Positions 24,624 through 31,133 of a DNA stretch of 45,407 bases are shown here, one piece after another. Position numbers and translations under genes: made by a program. Source of the DNA: a virus; the IMG/VR virus record IMGVR_UViG_3300011114_000627, positions 1 to 45,407 of that record. The stretch is one strand, 5' to 3'. The stretch's first letter is position 1. Each line of letters opens with the position of its first letter. The notes beneath the pieces were generated by a model. It worked only from the letters and a program-made list of their open reading frames with translations. It was not told the DNA's origin and did no database searches.

Positions 24624-24793
24624 AAGACGACGAACGGAAGGTTGTTGGAGCGATGGAGCAATGCGGCGGGCAATTCGTGAAGGCATTGGCTACCGCGATG
24701 ATGTTCGCGGATGAGATCAACTTCGTGATTCTGCGGGATGCGTTTCCCGTGTACTGGCGACACTATGCAAAACTGGCGGGAGTGGAAGCGTGA
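24620..24793 (+). CDS. Small hypothetical protein
   Basis: A 57-residue protein from GTG 24620, GTGA-coupled to both neighbours. Helical, with QCGGQFVKALATAMMFADEINF in its middle. Its place just before the RecE-like nuclease suggests a role in the recombination block, but nothing in the sequence proves it. Confidence 0.5.
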   Translation: MKDDERKVVGAMEQCGGQFVKALATAMMFADEINFVILRDAFPVYWRHYAKLAGVEA

Positions 24794-25716
24794 AAAGAAT
24801 CAAAGACATCACAACGAAAACGCACGCACTCGGAGTCGTGGTAAACAAACCGCGAGTAGCCTACGACGGCGTGCATTATCTGAATCCGTCCAGTATCGCT
24901 GATGGGCTGGTTGACCACAAGGAAATCGACCCAGCGGCTATTAAGTTTGCATTTGAGGATCCATCGCGGACATATCAACAGGCGGCACTCGACCGAATGG
25001 ACCGAGGGACTCTGGCTCACATGATGCTGTTGCAGCCAGAGAGAGTCGGCAGTGAGGTTGCACAGTGGCTAGCGGGAAAGGTCCGACGCAAAGGAACCGA
25101 GAAAACGCCGTCCGATTGGGACGAATTCCGGGCGATGAATGCGGGCAAACTCATCATCTGCGAAGAGGATTATGAAGCCGTATCACTCGCCGTGGCTGCG
25201 TTCCAGTTTCAAAAACAAGTGCGGTTGCTGCTCGTGGATTTGGATGCCGAAGTAGCGATGTTTTCCCGTGAGCATTCATTCTACGTCAAGGGACTCGTTG
25301 ATGCCGTCACGAATGAAATCGAAGGCGTGGACGGTCCAATGCGGCGAATCATCGACCTGAAAACAACCGAGGCGGGAATCAGTGAGCGACAGGTTGAATA
25401 CACGATTCGCGACTTCCGTAACCGGGAAAAAATGGCGGCGTATCGTCGATGGTACGCACGCGAAAAAGACTATCCGAAGCACCAATTGAAGTGCATGAAT
25501 TTGTTTCTGTCGATGACGCCACCCTATGCCATTCGCATCGTCGACATACCCAGCATAACGCTGGACTGGGGCGAGCGGCGAATCGTCGAGGCGCTTGGCG
25601 AGGTGCAGAAGTGTTTGGACGCGGATAAGTGGCCGATGCTTGTCTCCAGTGGTGAAGCGTTGGTGGAGTCGTGGGAAGAAGAAGAACCAGAAATCCTAAT
25701 CGGGAACCTGAAATGA
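24790..25716 (+). CDS. RecE-like PD-(D/E)XK exonuclease
   Basis: A 308-residue nuclease of the RecE/YqaJ-type PD-(D/E)XK group. GTLAHMMLLQPE near 73-84 is the helix with the conserved His, GLVDAV places D171, and IIDLKTTE places D189 and K191; downstream Q/Y-rich helices (QLKCMNLFLS) complete the fold. Such 5'-3' exonucleases make single-strand tails for annealing recombination, normally with an annealase or SSB nearby. GTG 24790 overlaps the previous stop; ATGA links it to the next gene. Confidence 0.85.
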   Translation: MKRIKDITTKTHALGVVVNKPRVAYDGVHYLNPSSIADGLVDHKEIDPAAIKFAFEDPSRTYQQAALDRMDRGTLAHMMLLQPERVGSEVAQWLAGKVRRKGTEKTPSDWDEFRAMNAGKLIICEEDYEAVSLAVAAFQFQKQVRLLLVDLDAEVAMFSREHSFYVKGLVDAVTNEIEGVDGPMRRIIDLKTTEAGISERQVEYTIRDFRNREKMAAYRRWYAREKDYPKHQLKCMNLFLSMTPPYAIRIVDIPSITLDWGERRIVEALGEVQKCLDADKWPMLVSSGEALVESWEEEEPEILIGNLK

Positions 25717-26447
25717 GTATCGACGTATCCAAGACGATTGCGGCCAAGTCGGACCAGTTGAACGCCGACGACATGATTGGCGGACCACTGACGGTCAGGA
25801 TTCGTGATGTTCGCGCAGGCTCAACGGTCGAGCAGCCAATTACGATTGATGTCGATGGCTGGCCACAACCGTACAAACCATGCAAGACGATGCGGCGCGT
25901 GCTCGTGGCAGCGTGGGGCGGTGACAGTGCTGCCTACATTGGCCGGTCAATGACGCTGTACCGTGACCCCACAGTGCAATGGGGCGGCGAGGCGGTTGGC
26001 GGAATTCGCATTTCAGCAATGTCGGACATCCCGCATCGGCTGGAAATCCCGCTCGCCGTGACACGCAAGAGCAAACGGAAATTCGTCATCGAAGTCCTGA
26101 CCGATGCAGTCGCGACGTGGGCGGAAACGATTGACGCAGCCGATAGCCTGGAAGCACTAACGGCGATTGGCCAGCAAATGCGAGCGGCGAAATTGGCGGC
26201 TGGTGACGCGGATCGGTTGCGTGTCGTCTATCAGGCGAAATCAGCAGCATTGAAGACGGGCGACTCCACCGACCTGAACCGCGTCAACGAGGTCTACCAG
26301 GGCATCGACCGGCGAATCACGGACGGCATCACCAGCGCGGAGGCTGACCAGATTTCCACCGACATCAACACGGCGGAAAATGACGACACGTTGACGCAGC
26401 AGGAAGCGGCGGAACTGTTGGCACGGCTGAATAAGGTGATGGTGTAG
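25713..26447 (+). CDS. SSB-like recombination-associated protein
   Basis: A 244-residue protein starting at ATG 25713. The N-terminal 130 residues hold [38 protein letters not shown] and [12 protein letters not shown], a pattern I recall in uncharacterised phage proteins next to exonucleases and compatible with an OB-fold. The C-terminal 110 residues are acidic and helical, as in SSB tails. Likely binds the single-strand DNA made by the RecE-like nuclease. No RecT/Erf/Sak annealase is otherwise visible, so it may fill part of that role. Confidence 0.55.
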
Positions 26448-26451
26448 TGGT

Positions 26452-26471
26452 CCGCCAGCACGAACTGGCGG
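26452..26471 (+). terminator. Hairpin without T-run between recombination and methyltransferase genes
   Basis: CCGCCAG (26452-26458) pairs perfectly with CTGGCGG (26465-26471), loop CACGAA, 5 bases after the SSB-like stop. With no T-run it is more likely an mRNA stabiliser or partial attenuator than a full terminator. Confidence 0.45.
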
Positions 26472-26493
26472 CGGCGAATTGAAAGGGAGCGTG

Positions 26494-27036
26494 ATGACAT
26501 TTCGCGAAGTTACCATCGGACCATGCAGGCTCATCAACGCGGATTGCATGGACGTGCTGCCGACGTTGGCGGGTGTTGACGCCGTGGTGACGGACCCGCC
26601 GTATGGGATTGGAATTAACAAGAGTCACCGCTTGTCAACCAGTCGCGGGCATGGCGGCGAATCATGGGACGATAAGCCATGCAGCCCAGTCGTACTCGAG
26701 TGGATTCAACAGCAGCCTCATGCGGTTGTCTGGGGCGGGAATTACTTCACGCTTCCTCCTGCGAAGTGCGTAATCGTGTGGGATAAAATGAATGATGACA
26801 GGGACTTCGCAGACTTCGAGATGGCATTATGCGACCCATTCATGGGCAGCGGCACAACCGGCGTTGCGTGCATCCAGACGGAGCGGCAATTCATCGGCAT
26901 CGAAAAGGAACCTAAGTGTTTCGACATTGCCGTTGAGCGCATCCGTCGGGCATGGCAACTGAAGTGCAGCGAACTGCCGTTTGATAAGCCGAAACCGGAG
27001 CGGCAACTAGACCTGTTGATGGGAGCAGATCAATGA
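26494..27036 (+). CDS. DNA adenine methyltransferase-like protein, no. 2, internally shortened
   Basis: A 180-residue protein with motif IV TDPPYG near residue 33 and motif [12 protein letters not shown] near 112, both intact and typical of N6-adenine or N4 enzymes. Between DFADFEMA and CDPFMGSG, full-length relatives normally have about 50-60 residues including an HPTQKP motif; here they are missing in frame. That region helps bind SAM and the target, so activity is doubtful. ATG 26494 follows AGGGAG; the stop overlaps the paired zinc-ribbon gene. Confidence 0.75.
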
Positions 27037-27272
27037 CACAACTCTCATACGGCGATTGCGACGGCTGCGGCAACTTCGATTGGATGTCAGTGATTCCGCA
27101 AGTCGGGGAATACTGCCCAACGTGCATGGTCAAGTTATCACGGACCACGCTGTACGAGGGTGCAATCACCGGGGCGTCATTGGTCGAACGGGCAACGGCG
27201 TTTGATGTGGAAGTTCTGTCGCGCACGGTTCGGCTACGGGCACAGGCGCGGCAGATTATTGATAGTGAGTGA
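27033..27272 (+). CDS. Zinc-ribbon protein B, copy 2 (methyltransferase-associated)
   Basis: A 79-residue protein, ATGA-coupled to the shortened methyltransferase. CDGC and CPTC make the ribbon and the tail [17 protein letters not shown] plus [11 protein letters not shown] mirrors the 22225 protein. The same gene pair in two places suggests the ribbon works with, or travels with, the methyltransferase. Confidence 0.7.
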
Positions 27273-27301
27273 TGTGGGTTCTACTTTTGAAAGGTTCTGT
27301 C

Positions 27302-28126
27302 ATGGCGAAGGCGAAAGAAACGACCGAGATTCAGATTGTCCAAGTTGATCGCGGACACGTCGAGTATTGCATTCTCGGCACAACCCCGCTGATCCTGAAT
27401 CGGATGAGCGAAAAGGCGATGCACGAACTGTTGTTACCGAAGGGCAAGAAGACCGCTGCGGACAAGGCGTCCAGCCTGAAGCACGACCCCTACGCGGAAT
27501 TCCTGGCGTCACCGTACACCGACCCTGATCCAAAGGCACCGACGCTGATTACCCATCTGGCGACGGCGTTCAAGCGTGGCATCAGTGCGGCGGCGATGGA
27601 CGTTCCCGGATCGAGCAAGGCGCAGATCGGGCGTCTCACATGGGTCGAGGGCGAGCGAATCCACATCTACGGCATTCCTCAGATGCTGATGTCGGTCACT
27701 CGCTCGGCAGACATGAACAAGACGCCAGATATCAGAACCCGCGTCATCATTCCGCAGTGGGCGTGCCGTATCACGGTCAGTTTCGTCAAGCCTCTGCTGA
27801 ACGAAACGAGCATCACGAATCTGCTCGTGTCGGCTGGGCTTACGCAAGGGACGGGCGATTGGCGAACCGGCAAAGGTTCTGGCACCTACGGCTCGTTTGA
27901 AGTCACTTCGCAGGACAATCCCGACTTCAAGTTGATCCTGAAGACCGGCACGCGCAAGGCTCAAGAGTCCGCGATGAAAGACCCTGAAGCCTACGACCGC
28001 GAAACCGAAGAACTATACGAATACTTCAAGTCGGAAGTCGGCAAACGCGGCAAGGGCGATTTGGTGGCGGGTGGTGTCGCGAAGCCGTCCAAGGGAAAGA
28101 AGTCCAAGGTTGGTGAAGCAGTCTGA
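27302..28126 (+). CDS. Conserved phage protein with glycine-rich loop, unknown function
   Basis: A 274-residue protein from ATG 27302. It starts with a beta strand and GTTPLILNRMSEKA, continues with TPDIRTRVIIPQWACRITVSF, and has a glycine-rich loop near residues 188-202 (QGTGDWRTGKGSGTYG). The loop and alternating strands recall RAMP/Cas7-like RRM folds, but this is only a resemblance. The last 40 residues are Lys/Gly-rich and disordered. The position between the nuclease/SSB block and the replication genes makes a nucleic-acid binding or annealing role plausible. Confidence 0.55.
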   Translation: MAKAKETTEIQIVQVDRGHVEYCILGTTPLILNRMSEKAMHELLLPKGKKTAADKASSLKHDPYAEFLASPYTDPDPKAPTLITHLATAFKRGISAAAMDVPGSSKAQIGRLTWVEGERIHIYGIPQMLMSVTRSADMNKTPDIRTRVIIPQWACRITVSFVKPLLNETSITNLLVSAGLTQGTGDWRTGKGSGTYGSFEVTSQDNPDFKLILKTGTRKAQESAMKDPEAYDRETEELYEYFKSEVGKRGKGDLVAGGVAKPSKGKKSKVGEAV

Positions 28127-28470
28127 TTGGCTCGGCTGGTGCGGCATGGCGCGAACAGAATGGCGAGGCGCGGCGTGTCGGGGTATGGCTGGTGAGGAGC
28201 GGATTGGATAGGACAGGCAGCACTTGGCGCGGCTGGCAAGACTCGGATTGGAAAGGACAGCCTACAACTGGAACGGCAAGGCTGGCGGTGATTGGCACGG
28301 ATGCTGGTTTGGCGAGGACAGGTTAGGAAAGGATCGGCGGGGCAACGCGCGGCATGGCTGGATTGGCAGGGACTGGCCGGGCGAGGAGATGCCGGGAATG
28401 GCGTGGACAGGCGGGATCGGCCAGGCGAGGACTGGATCGGCAAGGCAACGCGCGGCGCGGCTGGAACGGA
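28127..28470 (+). repeat. Degenerate pentanucleotide (NNNGG) array, about 68 units
   Basis: From the base after the previous stop to about 20 bases before the next start, G or GG recurs every 5 bases with only occasional 4-base steps or skipped positions, for example at 28201, 28206, 28211, 28216 and at 28311, 28316, 28321, 28326, 28331, 28336, 28341. The three other bases vary. About 20 of the units read GGA. A reading frame runs through part of it by chance of low stop content, but a 5-base period does not fit codons. Its G-rich strand is the message strand. Confidence 0.85.
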
Positions 28471-28490
28471 CATCAACTCAAAGGGTAATC

Positions 28491-29009
28491 ATGGATTCAG
28501 AAACGCGAAAACTATTGCACGCACGGCTCGAAAAGATCCGCGCCAAGGCACAGGGGGTACTAACTCCCGACGATGTTGTGAAGGATGCACGGAGCGCATC
28601 AAGCCCGCTGCATTCTCATTTCACATGGGACGACAGCGAGGCGGCACATCAGTTTCGGCTGGAGCAGGCTCGCACGTTGATTCGCAATGTCAGGGTCGAA
28701 GTCTCAACGTCAACCGTCACGATGGCGGCACCGTTTTACATTCGCGACCCACGATGCGGCACTCAGCAGGGTTACGCATCCGTCGCGGAAATCAAGACTG
28801 ATCGGCAAGTCTCGGCGGATGCGTTGAAGATGGAGATTGCACGAGTCATTGGCGTCTACGAACGAGCGGCCAGCATCGCCGAAGAATTGGGACTGTCGAG
28901 TCACCTGGAGCAAGCCATTAACGCGGCGAGGTCACTGCAACAGGTCGTTGAGAAGGTCGCGACCAAGAACCCGAAATCAACTAAGCGTCCGAAAACGGCA
29001 ACAGCATGA
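28491..29009 (+). CDS. Hypothetical phage protein near recombination genes
   Basis: A 172-residue protein, ATG 28491 chosen because AAAGGG lies 5 bases upstream and the longer open frame runs through the repeat array. N-terminal coiled helix (LHARLEKIRAKAQG), then PDDVVKDARSASSPLHSHFTWDD, a segment I recall in many phage proteins of unknown role, and a basic C-terminus (KNPKSTKRPKTATA). It could be a recombination or replication accessory factor. Confidence 0.6.
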   Translation: MDSETRKLLHARLEKIRAKAQGVLTPDDVVKDARSASSPLHSHFTWDDSEAAHQFRLEQARTLIRNVRVEVSTSTVTMAAPFYIRDPRCGTQQGYASVAEIKTDRQVSADALKMEIARVIGVYERAASIAEELGLSSHLEQAINAARSLQQVVEKVATKNPKSTKRPKTATA

Positions 29010-29082
29010 CCAACACCACCACGGAGACAACCCGACTAGCTCGGACTGACCGTGACCCCTGCTGTGAGTGAAGGATAGGTTA

Positions 29083-29901
29083 ATGGTTTACGACAAGGAC
29101 GGCATCCAACTGATTTGCGGCGACAACTGCGAGACGATGCTGGCGATGACACCGGCTTCGATTGACCTTGTTGTCACGTCGCCACCCTACGACGACCTGC
29201 GAACGTATGGCGGGCACTCGTGGGACTTCTACGGAGTGGCGTGGAACCTGAAACGGTTGCTCAAGCCGGGCGGGGTGATTGTGTGCAACGTCAATGACGC
29301 CACCAAGGACGGCAGCGAAACTGGTAGCAGTGCCGATCAGGCGAAGTTCTTTCGGCGAATCGGACTTCGACAGCATGACACGATGATCTACGCGAAAAAA
29401 GGATTCAGCTTCCCGGACTCGACGAGGTATCATCAAGTCTGGGAGTATATGTACATCTTCGCCAATGGCGAACCAACCTCGTTTAACCCTATTTGCGACA
29501 GGGCGAATGAAACGGGCGGCAAACCACTCGGAGGCGATTACAAGCGAGATGCCGATGGCCGATCTGTTATGCGACCCGGAAGTGGCGATCGCGGTGTGCG
29601 GCGCGAAATGGGCCAGAGATTCAATATTTGGACATATTCGGCGGGGTGCGGACAGAGTTCTTTGGATGCCGTCGCATTCAACCACCCGGCCATCTTCCCC
29701 GAGGATCTAGCCCGCGACCACATCCTAAGCTGGTCCAACGAAGGCGACATCGTGCTTGACCCGTTCAGCGGATCTGGCACCACGATGAAGATGGCACGCG
29801 AAACCGGACGGCGCGGCATCGGCATCGAGATAAACCGCGAATACTGCGACATAGCAATCAAGAGGCTGGAGCAGAGATTGCTGTTCGGAGTTGAGTCGTA
29901 A
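29083..29901 (+). CDS. Site-specific DNA methyltransferase (N4/N6 family), no. 3
   Basis: A 272-residue, apparently intact enzyme: motif IV TSPPY at 32-36 (N4-cytosine-like), motif X-like HPAIFPEDLARDHI at 201-214, and motif I DPFSGSGTT at 226-234. ATG 29083 has AAGGA 7 bases upstream. It stands alone, without zinc-ribbon or restriction partner. It probably modifies phage DNA against host restriction. Confidence 0.9.
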   Translation: MVYDKDGIQLICGDNCETMLAMTPASIDLVVTSPPYDDLRTYGGHSWDFYGVAWNLKRLLKPGGVIVCNVNDATKDGSETGSSADQAKFFRRIGLRQHDTMIYAKKGFSFPDSTRYHQVWEYMYIFANGEPTSFNPICDRANETGGKPLGGDYKRDADGRSVMRPGSGDRGVRREMGQRFNIWTYSAGCGQSSLDAVAFNHPAIFPEDLARDHILSWSNEGDIVLDPFSGSGTTMKMARETGRRGIGIEINREYCDIAIKRLEQRLLFGVES

Positions 29902-30179
29902 ATTTGTTATGTCGGCATCGAATATAGACTTGTGCGAATTCCGTAAATAAGTGGGATAACTGGCGCGAAACTGGGGTTGATTGTGGAAGCGACCTTTGGA
30001 CAATCGATTGCGTCGGAAGTGATGAGCCGACAAGATAAACACGCCTTCCAAGAAGCGGAACCGGAGTTCCGTGCGTCGTTTATCCGCACGGTTTCACCAG
30101 CGACTCATCATCGCCCCGCTTTTTGGAAGGCGTTTTCGTTTTACAGGGGAAGCGAAAACGTCAGAACGGAGTCGTTCTG
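29902..30179 (+). promoter_or_regulatory. Non-coding leader upstream of the replication gene
   Basis: A 278-base gap without a credible gene. The first 90 bases are relatively AT-rich and could hold a promoter, though I find no clear pair of boxes. The last 140 bases are densely base-paired (next entry). Position just before the initiator gene also allows an origin-related function. Confidence 0.6.
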
Positions 30180-30182
30180 ATG
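30042..30182 (+). promoter_or_regulatory. Structured 5' leader of the replication gene
   Basis: P1: 30042-30058 pairs with 30116-30132 over 17 bases (one G-U). Inside, P2: CCGTGCG (30069-30075) with CGCACGG (30085-30091); an alternative hairpin CGGAAC/GTTCCG (30056-30061 with 30066-30071, loop CGGA) excludes parts of P1 and P2. P3: CGTTTTCG (30131-30138) with CGAAAACG (30153-30160), loop with a GGGGA. P4 abuts it: TCAGAACG (30161-30168) with CGTTCTGA (30173-30180), loop GAGT. The ribosome binding GGAG is in P4's tip and the A of the AUG (30180) is its last paired base, so P4 should block initiation unless opened or bound. Confidence 0.65.
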
Positions 30183-31133
30183 GCTGGCGACTGGATAAAA
30201 ATGCGAGCGGGATTGCTGACCCACCCCAAGGTTATTGGCATGGTAAACCACCTTGCCACCGATCCCGCGTTCTTCAACTTTATCTGTCAGGATGACATCA
30301 CTGGCGGCGACCTTGGCGGGTTTAATCCTGACCCAAAATCCGTAACGGATATCGTAACGCGACAGGCGTTACGCGCCGTTACGGTGTGTGGATTACTGTC
30401 GTTATGGTCGGCTGCTCGCCAGCACTCAGATTCAGGGGTTCTGACCGGATTGACCGTGGATGACCTTGACGAAATGGCAGGTGTGCCAGGGTTCGGGCGA
30501 GCCATGCACAAGGTTGGTTGGGCTGTTGCGGACGAGCATCATAACTCCATAGTGCTACCGAACTTTACGGAATGGAATGATCAGTCACATAAGGGACCGA
30601 CACAGACTAATGCGGAGCGGCAAAAGGCGTTTCGGGAACGACAAAAGAGCCGTAACGAAACCGTAACGAAAAGTAACGTAGAGGAGAGTAGAGGAGAGGA
30701 GAGTAGAGGAGAGAGTAAAGAAGAGTCCGCACGCAGGGATGAAAAGACATTCCTGACAGGACCGTCTGAAGACTTCGACAAGTGGTGGAACACGTATCCC
30801 TGTCGGTCGGCAAAATCGGATGCGTGGAAGGCGTGGCAGGCGGCTGTGGTCACAATCGCATCTGAGCGTGGCATTGACGACGCAGCGTCAATTGCTTGGC
30901 TACTTGGCCGAACCAGGGACTACCGCGATTCAGCGGCCGGGCGAGATCCAGTGAGCGGCGGCGACTTTCGGCCCGCTCCCGCCAAATGGCTGTCATCCGG
31001 GAAGTATGACGACGATCTGAAGGAATGGGCGAAACCGAACGGGGACGCACCGAAGGGTGCCAAGACCAAGCCAAAACTCCCACCGCTGCCACAAAAGGCC
31101 ACTGCGGCGATTCAAGGAATGATGAATGACTGA
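30180..31133 (+). CDS. Replication initiator / replisome organiser
   Basis: A 317-residue protein. The N-terminal 120 residues (GDWIKMRAGLLTHPKV, ATDPAFFNFIC, VDDLDEMAGVPGFG) form a winged-helix DNA-binding domain like those of phage O/DnaD-type initiators. A highly charged linker (about residues 150-185, rich in EESRGE) follows, then DFDKWWNTYPCRSAKSDAWKAW, the WWxxYP motif common to phage replication proteins. It is followed by DnaB with an 8-base overlap, the usual initiator-helicase pairing. ATG 30180 is chosen because GGAG lies 8 bases upstream; iterons lie within its coding sequence as in lambda O. Confidence 0.8.
   Translation: MAGDWIKMRAGLLTHPKVIGMVNHLATDPAFFNFICQDDITGGDLGGFNPDPKSVTDIVTRQALRAVTVCGLLSLWSAARQHSDSGVLTGLTVDDLDEMAGVPGFGRAMHKVGWAVADEHHNSIVLPNFTEWNDQSHKGPTQTNAERQKAFRERQKSRNETVTKSNVEESRGEESRGESKEESARRDEKTFLTGPSEDFDKWWNTYPCRSAKSDAWKAWQAAVVTIASERGIDDAASIAWLLGRTRDYRDSAAGRDPVSGGDFRPAPAKWLSSGKYDDDLKEWAKPNGDAPKGAKTKPKLPPLPQKATAAIQGMMND
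30340..30384 (+). other. Nested dyad of four CGTWACG motifs (candidate origin/operator)
   Basis: Within the initiator gene, CCGTAACGG (30340-30348) and CGTAACGC (30353-30360) are mirrored by GCGTTACG (30366-30373) and CCGTTACGG (30376-30384). Both pairs are exact reverse complements around one centre near 30363. Spacing between like motifs is 10-12 bases, about one helix turn, as for cooperative initiator binding. Confidence 0.65.
30650..30682 (+). repeat. Three 11-bp direct iterons
   Basis: CCGTAACGAAA at 30650 and again at 30661, then AGTAACGTAGA at 30672. They share the GTAACG core with the upstream dyad and repeat at one helical turn. 11 is not a multiple of 3, so the repeat is not a protein-level one. 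Confidence 0.7.
30681..30725 (+). repeat. Nine purine-rich pentamers beside the iterons
   Basis: From 30681 in strict 5-base register: GAGGA, GAGTA, GAGGA, GAGGA, GAGTA, GAGGA, GAGAG, TAAAG, AAGAG. It encodes part of the charged EESRGE linker. The purine strand could form an unusual duplex or an unwinding element next to the iterons. Confidence 0.75.

What the first reader, a model, noticed from the sequence alone, without database searches (positions are those of the whole stretch)
28127..28470. A 344-bp intergenic array with GG every five bases
Nearly every fifth base pair of positions is G or GG across about 68 steps, with rare 4-base slips, filling exactly the space between one stop and the next ribosome binding site. 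The other three bases vary, so it is a period and not a simple repeat. Five is out of register with codons but half a helix turn, so G pairs fall on alternating faces of DNA. Possible roles: a recombination-stimulating or protein-wrapping element beside the RecE/SSB block, an R-loop or two-tier quadruplex former, or a long RNA with regularly spaced sites. I cannot name a described family for it.
Basis: seen in the sequence. Interest (0 to 1): 0.87.

Follow-up and report, generated by a model that had tools for sequence, protein, structure and literature searches.

The report
Phage RNA-guide array beside Vipr gene
The strange stretch with GG every five bases is a set of about seven guide RNAs of a recently described phage weapon (VIPR, a relative of CRISPR).

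Summary
In detail: 28129-28472 is a G-pair array with period 5 (lag-5 autocorrelation of G 0.49; best of 2000 shuffles 0.16) and the strongest in the window. It is a guide-RNA array of a VIPR system (preprint PMC13142463, 2026), not a recombination or protein-wrapping element. The gene ending at 28126 encodes a Vipr homologue. A profile of its relatives hits the solved SUSP1 Vipr protein (PDB 36pp, E=1.4e-5), and its predicted fold matches only CRISPR RAMP subunits in the PDB at E<=1e-3. Of 120 virus contigs picked only by the GG-period-5 pattern, 82 carry a Vipr gene, always on the same strand as the nearest array. The gene after the array (28491-29009) is a conserved neighbour, probably the Vipr accessory protein. 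The 4-base slips recur every 7-10 units here, and in relatives they delimit guides: one complete 11-unit relative guide, read by the published one-base-skip code, matches 22/22 positions in seven contigs, all in the Sak4-like recombinase gene with the skipped base at the codon wobble position. No convincing target of the window's own guides was found. New member of a known kind; the slip-delimited layout and the GGC/GGA, GTT and GAC scaffolds may be a variant.

The parts
27302..28126 (+). vipr homologue (274 aa from the likely start MAKAKETTE; the open frame begins at 27269): RAMP-fold protein with glycine-rich loop GTGDWRTGKGSGTYGSFEV
   Evidence: phrog_4652, the family that also holds SUSP1 Vipr; relatives' profile hits PDB 36pp 'SUSP1 Vipr protein' E=1.4e-5 and SUSP1 Vipr by hhalign, prob 96, E=1e-9; AlphaFold pLDDT 88; all 48 PDB fold hits with E<=1e-3 are CRISPR RAMP chains
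28129..28472 (+). vrRNA-type guide array: about 69 units GG(C/A/T)NN in modules separated by 4-nt slips
28134..28137 (+). slip/junction GGCT (others: 28148 GGCG, 28187 GGCT, 28231 GGCT, 28280 GGCT, 28302 TGCT inside a 7-nt unit, 28356 GGCT, 28410 GGCG, 28459 GGCT)
   Evidence: the same kind of junction in relatives, GGCG/GGCA/GGCT/GGCC in 262 of 342 slips
28152..28186 (+). guide module m2 (7 units): NN = AC AT GA GC GT GG AT
   Evidence: segmentation
28191..28230 (+). guide module m3 (8 units): GA GC TT TA CA AG TT GC
   Evidence: target scan
28235..28279 (+). guide module m4 (9 units): AA TC TT AA CA TA CT AC AA
   Evidence: target scan
28284..28301 (+). short or truncated module m5a (3 units): GG TT AC
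28306..28355 (+). guide module m5b (10 units): TT GA CA TA AA TC GG AA GC AT
   Evidence: target scans
28360..28409 (+). guide module m6 (10 units): TT AG CT CG GA GA CG AT GT CA
   Evidence: target scans
28414..28458 (+). guide module m7 (9 units): TC CA GA CT TC AA AA GC GC
   Evidence: target scan
28491..29009 (+). candidate vap (Vipr accessory protein), 172 aa, phrog_15946, mostly helical
   Evidence: homologues lie next to the Vipr gene in about 28 other loci; family alignment; AlphaFold pLDDT 88 but no PDB fold match

Best explanation
The 344-bp array encodes about seven tandem guide RNAs (vrRNAs) of a phage-borne VIPR system. Shown here: the gene just upstream is a Vipr (ancestral RAMP) homologue, the array is on its strand as in its relatives, and 4-nt slips cut the array into modules of mostly 7-10 pentamer units. 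Inferred from the published SUSP1/P. fulva work and from a relative's target found here: the array is transcribed, Vipr subunits bind along each guide at the conserved GG-containing triplet, and the variable NN dinucleotides pair with target DNA that reads NN x NN x NN (one target base skipped per unit, falling on codon wobble positions). The complex then represses genes of competing phages or prophages, with the downstream gene product as accessory. In this clade, guides run from one 4-nt junction to the next.
For: Period-5 array far above shuffles. Vipr homology: phrog_4652 shared with SUSP1 Vipr; PDB 36pp hit at E=1.4e-5 with a profile that does not contain SUSP1; hhalign E=1e-9. RAMP fold. 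82 of 120 contigs selected only by the array pattern have a Vipr gene, with strand agreement in 82 of 82. 38 of 39 Vipr loci, most chosen by protein homology to the window's Vipr, have a period-5 array on the same strand close to the gene and essentially none elsewhere; the exception ends inside the gene. SUSP1's own vrRNAs are visible as GGTNN runs beside its Vipr gene. Arrays turn over fast: L138 and L139 have Vipr genes 97.6% identical and share none of 12 and 7 modules exactly. Code test in the clade: the full 11-unit L133 guide read with a 1-nt skip hits 7 IMG/VR contigs at 22/22, all in the Sak4-like gene, sense, with the skip on the wobble base and, within the site, differences only at skipped bases.
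Against: The fixed triplet here is GGC or GGA (32 C, 22 A, 5 T in the third position) rather than the published GGY. No separate structured 3' tail was recognised. No convincing target of the window's own guides was found in five scans of viral contigs or in 369 genomes with two modules. Transcription and binding are not shown. In the held sequences as a whole, the 1-nt skip gives no clear excess of good matches over other skips apart from the Sak4 case. The seven Sak4 contigs are partly near-identical, and the guide was chosen for the full scan because its first nine units already matched Sak4 genes. The VIPR description is a preprint, and its supplement, including the type definitions, could not be read.
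Confidence: 0.93

Rival explanations
1. A degraded or idle VIPR array: it was a guide array but is no longer expressed or no longer has targets.
For: About ten units lack a full GG; the third base has drifted to A in over a third of units; one module is truncated (28284-28301); no own target was found.
Against: Relatives with clearly long arrays show similar imperfect units, and the L133 guide that matches Sak4 perfectly itself contains a GATGA unit. The Vipr frame is intact and conserved, and the period is kept over all 69 units.
Confidence: 0.1
2. A DNA element: recombination hot spot, protein-wrapping site or replication structure next to the RecE-like exonuclease, working through GG pairs on alternating helix faces.
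For: RecE-like exonuclease (24790-25716) and replication genes are nearby.
Against: Arrays follow Vipr genes in phages with different neighbours, always on the Vipr strand (82 of 82). A DNA-face model does not predict guide modules, a strand rule or target matches. Relatives replace GG by GT or GA with the same period.
Confidence: 0.02
3. A protein-coding repeat, or an RNA sponge for another protein that likes GGA-type sites at five-base spacing (CsrA or TRAP type).
For: Long open frames cross the array on both strands (28224-29009 + and 27991-28476 -); TRAP-type RNA sites have about five-base spacing (own knowledge).
Against: The period is 5, not 3, and 4-nt slips shift the frame; closely related phages share almost no whole modules; neither CsrA nor TRAP explains linkage to a RAMP protein or the hypervariable NN.
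Confidence: 0.02

Closest known systems
VIPR system of Escherichia phage SUSP1 (type II; PMC13142463; Vipr ALH47069, PDB 36pp)
   Same: Phage-borne; Vipr RAMP protein of the same PHROG family; pentameric GG-containing repeats with hypervariable NN on the Vipr strand next to the gene; a small accessory gene beside Vipr.
   Different: SUSP1 has separate ~100-nt vrRNAs with GGT/GGC units and a conserved folded 3' tail; the window has one continuous tail-less array of about seven modules split by 4-nt slips, GGC/GGA units, a Vipr with a C-terminal extension, and an accessory gene not detectably related to SUSP1 Vap1.
VIPR-like loci of mycobacteriophage Saal and Gordonia phages Pipp and ODay (L159-L161)
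   Same: Same Vipr family, at 26-32% identity to the window's, each with a GG array beside it and, next to Vipr, a gene related to the window's accessory gene.
   Different: Different hosts and array positions: upstream of vipr in Saal, downstream in Pipp and ODay.
Class 1 CRISPR-Cas RAMP effectors (Csm3/Cas7 family) with CRISPR arrays
   Same: RAMP fold and G-loop; multi-subunit RNA-guided effector logic.
   Different: No identical repeats with unique contiguous spacers; the repeat unit here is 5 nt and targeting information is discontinuous; no cas genes were noticed around the array.

Membership tests
VIPR | Vipr-family RAMP homologue encoded at the locus | tested here: met
   phrog_4652 shared with SUSP1 Vipr; profile hit to PDB 36pp E=1.4e-5; hhalign E=1e-9
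VIPR | RRM/RAMP fold with glycine-rich loop | tested here: met
   AlphaFold pLDDT 88; all 48 PDB matches with E<=1e-3 are CRISPR RAMP chains; invariant G...G.GD.R...G motif
VIPR | Tandem pentanucleotide repeats: constant triplet containing GG, hypervariable NN | tested here: met
   NN positions use all four bases; modules differ between phages with 97.6% identical Vipr genes
VIPR | Triplet exactly GGY (or, in the preprint's words, a related consensus) | tested here: inconclusive
   third base 32 C, 22 A, 5 T, so GGC/GGA; relatives use GGY, GTY or GAC; the preprint allows related consensuses but its fig. S17 could not be seen
VIPR | 9-16 repeats per guide | tested here: met
   full modules of 7-10 units in the window; clade mode 8-11; the low end is slightly under the published range
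VIPR | Conserved 3' tail on each vrRNA (type II) | tested here: inconclusive
   no tail found inside the array, only 4-nt junctions; the preprint reports other types with staggered arrays
VIPR | Accessory (vap) gene beside vipr | tested here: met
   P0002 homologues sit beside Vipr in about 28 other loci; assignment to vap1-6 could not be tested
VIPR | Encoded by a phage or provirus | tested here: met
   the window is an IMG/VR virus record with DnaB, replication initiation and RecE-like genes
VIPR | Guides match targets by the 1-nt skip rule, skip at the wobble base | tested here: inconclusive
   met for a clade member (L133 guide, 22/22 in Sak4 genes of seven contigs); no convincing target for the window's own modules
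VIPR | vrRNA expressed and bound by Vipr; target repression | not testable with these tools
   needs small-RNA sequencing, pull-down and a reporter assay
CRISPR-Cas | Direct repeats of 20-50 nt separated by unique spacers, with cas genes | tested here: not met
   repeat unit is 5 nt with no longer conserved repeat; no cas family was hit among the ten neighbouring proteins scanned

The most novel reading that the evidence does not exclude
The window's clade is a distinct VIPR architecture not yet described: tail-less guides packed head to tail, each delimited only by a 4-nt truncated unit (GGCN) that acts as processing or phasing mark, with interchangeable scaffold triplets (GGC/GGA, GTT, GAC) co-evolving with the Vipr protein, and guides aimed at core recombination genes such as Sak4 of rival phages.
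Probability: 0.3. Interest if true: 0.75.

Novelty: new member of a known kind. Interest (0 to 1): 0.62.

Why it matters
VIPR was reported only in 2026 as a possible ancestor of CRISPR. This locus is another member, in an environmental phage far from the two characterised ones. The scan shows that a DNA pattern alone (GG every five bases) finds such systems across virus contigs without knowing the protein. It adds two testable points: guide boundaries in continuous arrays are the 4-nt slips, and a predicted natural target in this clade is the Sak4-like recombinase of other phages, hit by an 11-unit guide read with one skipped base at every codon's wobble position.

Tried and rejected
RNA secondary structure of the array: no better than shuffles. 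Rfam: no match in 26000-31000. Pfam and a single-sequence PDB search: nothing for the Vipr protein; only PHROG, profile and fold searches reveal it. Own targets: 16-base patterns of modules m3, m4, m5b, m6 and m7 in all IMG/VR contigs gave 14, 71, 15, 2 and 16 hits. The m7 hits are mostly a tape-measure-like peptide (SQDLSKNAA) in contigs that share no window protein. L275 (m5b, 19/20) and L208 (m4, 18/18, a phage sharing a helicase and a methylase with the window but with the skip not on the wobble base) are within chance. m6 and m5b with one mismatch in 369 genomes of one class: none. All-against-all guide/target comparison in held loci: no general excess for the 1-nt skip over 0, 2, 3 or reversed controls apart from the Sak4 case. 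Vap: no fold match and no similarity to SUSP1 Vap1. Of the 120 pattern-selected contigs, 38 have no Vipr hit; some are truncated, some simple repeats, some unexplained.

Full report
Observation. Over 28127-28470 the lag-5 autocorrelation of G is 0.49; 2000 dinucleotide-preserving shuffles average 0.00 with a maximum of 0.16, and no other place in the window comes near. A simple segmentation gives 69 units: 61 of five bases, seven of four bases (GGCT or GGCG) and one of seven. Among five-base units the first two bases are almost always GG, the third is C or A (rarely T), and the last two are open. The array runs from 28129 to 28472, between the stop of one gene (28126) and the start of the next (28491). 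As RNA it has no more fold than shuffled sequence, and Rfam has no match.

What it is. A literature search found a 2026 preprint (PMC13142463) that describes VIPR: phage-borne systems of a small RAMP protein (Vipr) and guide RNAs made of 9-16 pentamers in which GGY alternates with variable NN. The NN dinucleotides pair with DNA that has one skipped base per unit, and the complex represses genes of competing elements. Each testable part was checked.

The protein. The 285-codon frame 27269-28126, directly upstream, has no Pfam or single-sequence PDB match but falls in phrog_4652 (E=2.5e-10). SUSP1's Vipr (ALH47069) falls in the same family at 1.4e-96. A profile built from the window protein and 14 relatives, without SUSP1, finds PDB 36pp 'SUSP1 Vipr protein' at E=1.4e-5 and SUSP1 Vipr by hhalign at E=1e-9. 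An AlphaFold model (mean pLDDT 88) compared with the PDB gives 48 matches at E<=1e-3, every one a CRISPR RAMP chain of Csm, Cas7-11 or type VII complexes (36pp was not among the matches, and that library ends in April 2026). The most conserved columns form the G-loop, AG..(V)G.GD.R....G.F.V.

Gene and array go together. 120 virus stretches were collected only because they hold GGNNN ten times in a row. In 82 of them a Vipr homologue lies in the fetched DNA, and the nearest array is on the Vipr strand in 82 of 82. Conversely, of 34 loci fetched only by homology to the window's Vipr, all but one (whose contig ends inside the gene) have a period-5 array on the same strand close by, and none elsewhere in 333 kb apart from one opposite-strand reading of the same array. 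SUSP1, mycobacteriophage Saal and Gordonia phages Pipp and ODay show the same. The array is therefore part of a VIPR locus. The gene after the array (28491-29009) has homologues beside Vipr in about 28 other loci and is the likely accessory gene. It is mostly helical, with no known fold and no detectable relation to SUSP1 Vap1.

Anatomy. The 4-base slips are informative. In the window they lie at 28134, 28148, 28187, 28231, 28280, 28302 (inside the 7-base unit), 28356, 28410 and 28459. They are more evenly spaced than random (P=0.015) and leave modules of mostly 7-10 units. In a set of 40 loci of the clade (window included) the module length peaks at 8-11 units, and 262 of 342 slips are a truncated GGCN unit. 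The closest relative (L180, 67% identical Vipr) has the same GGCT slip. Relatives also show that the constant triplet is not always GGY: it is GTT in L127-L131 and L146, GAC in L156, mixed in L180, and GGC/GGA here. Arrays turn over quickly: L138 and L139 have Vipr genes 97.6% identical and share no complete module.

Does the code work in this clade? All guides were compared with all held DNA using 0-4 skipped bases. No broad excess appeared, but one guide stood out at skip 1. A complete module of L133 (between two GGCG slips; NN = GG AT GT GA GA GT AT AC AT AC GA) matched its first nine units in a gene of L127, L130 and L146, in sense and with the skipped base exactly on the wobble position. 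The full 22-base gapped pattern was then run against all virus contigs. Exactly seven contigs match, every one in the same Sak4-like annealing/recombination gene (family assigned on the L127 homologue as phrog_124; peptide GIVDEVITMTE), again at wobble phase, and within the site they differ from each other only at skipped bases. By scaling from five 16-base scans (2-71 hits), about 0.006 hits would be expected. Because the guide was picked for its partial match, and the contigs are not independent, a fairer estimate of chance is of the order of one in a thousand (my estimate). This supports the published code in the window's clade, the junction-to-junction extent of a guide, and a biologically sensible target.

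The window's own targets. Modules m3-m7 were scanned by 8-unit patterns in viral contigs, and m6 and m5b in 369 genomes. Nothing convincing was found. Records very near the window may have been left out of these collections, so absence is weak evidence.

Mechanism. Shown: Vipr homology, RAMP fold, array, strand, modules, rapid turnover, and a clade-level code match. Inferred from the preprint: transcription, Vipr binding at the constant triplets, pairing through NN, and repression of rival phage genes. The exact VIPR type could not be assigned because the supplement was not available. The slip-delimited, tail-less layout may be the preprint's 'staggered arrays' or a variant of its own.

Verdict. 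A real and striking feature, already explained in kind. It is a new member of VIPR with some new anatomical detail and a predicted target for a relative.

Noticed in passing
L127:9294-9579, L131:9273-9903, L146:9392-9937, L156:9397-9662: Vipr relatives carry period-5 arrays whose constant triplet is GTT (L127, L131, L146) or GAC (L156) instead of GGY, with the same kind of junctions; a GG-only scan misses them.
   Followed up: partly
L133:3659-3977 (guide) and L294-L300 (targets): An 11-unit guide matches the Sak4-like recombinase gene of seven contigs at 22 of 22 positions under the one-base-skip code, all at wobble phase.
   Followed up: yes
L111:10538-10897, L015:8659-8858, L066:10438-10591, L078:24-322: Long GG-period-5 arrays without a recognisable Vipr gene in the fetched DNA: orphan arrays, truncated fetches or a more divergent Vipr.
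   Followed up: partly
L159-L161 (mycobacteriophage Saal, Gordonia phages Pipp and ODay): Cultured phages with a Vipr gene annotated as hypothetical protein and a GG array beside it; convenient laboratory systems.
   Followed up: partly
L180:8825-10296: Two long mixed-triplet arrays (82 and 106 units) beside a Vipr gene 67% identical to the window's, in a Gammaproteobacteria MAG contig.
   Followed up: no
window 30680-30725: Purine-rich GAGGA-type short repeats inside the replication initiation gene (30123-31133), the next-highest period-5 signal in the window.
   Followed up: no
window 26479-27036: Short frame (185 aa) with two separate methyltransferase matches (residues 21-52 and 118-153), as if a DNA methyltransferase had lost its middle.
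   Followed up: no
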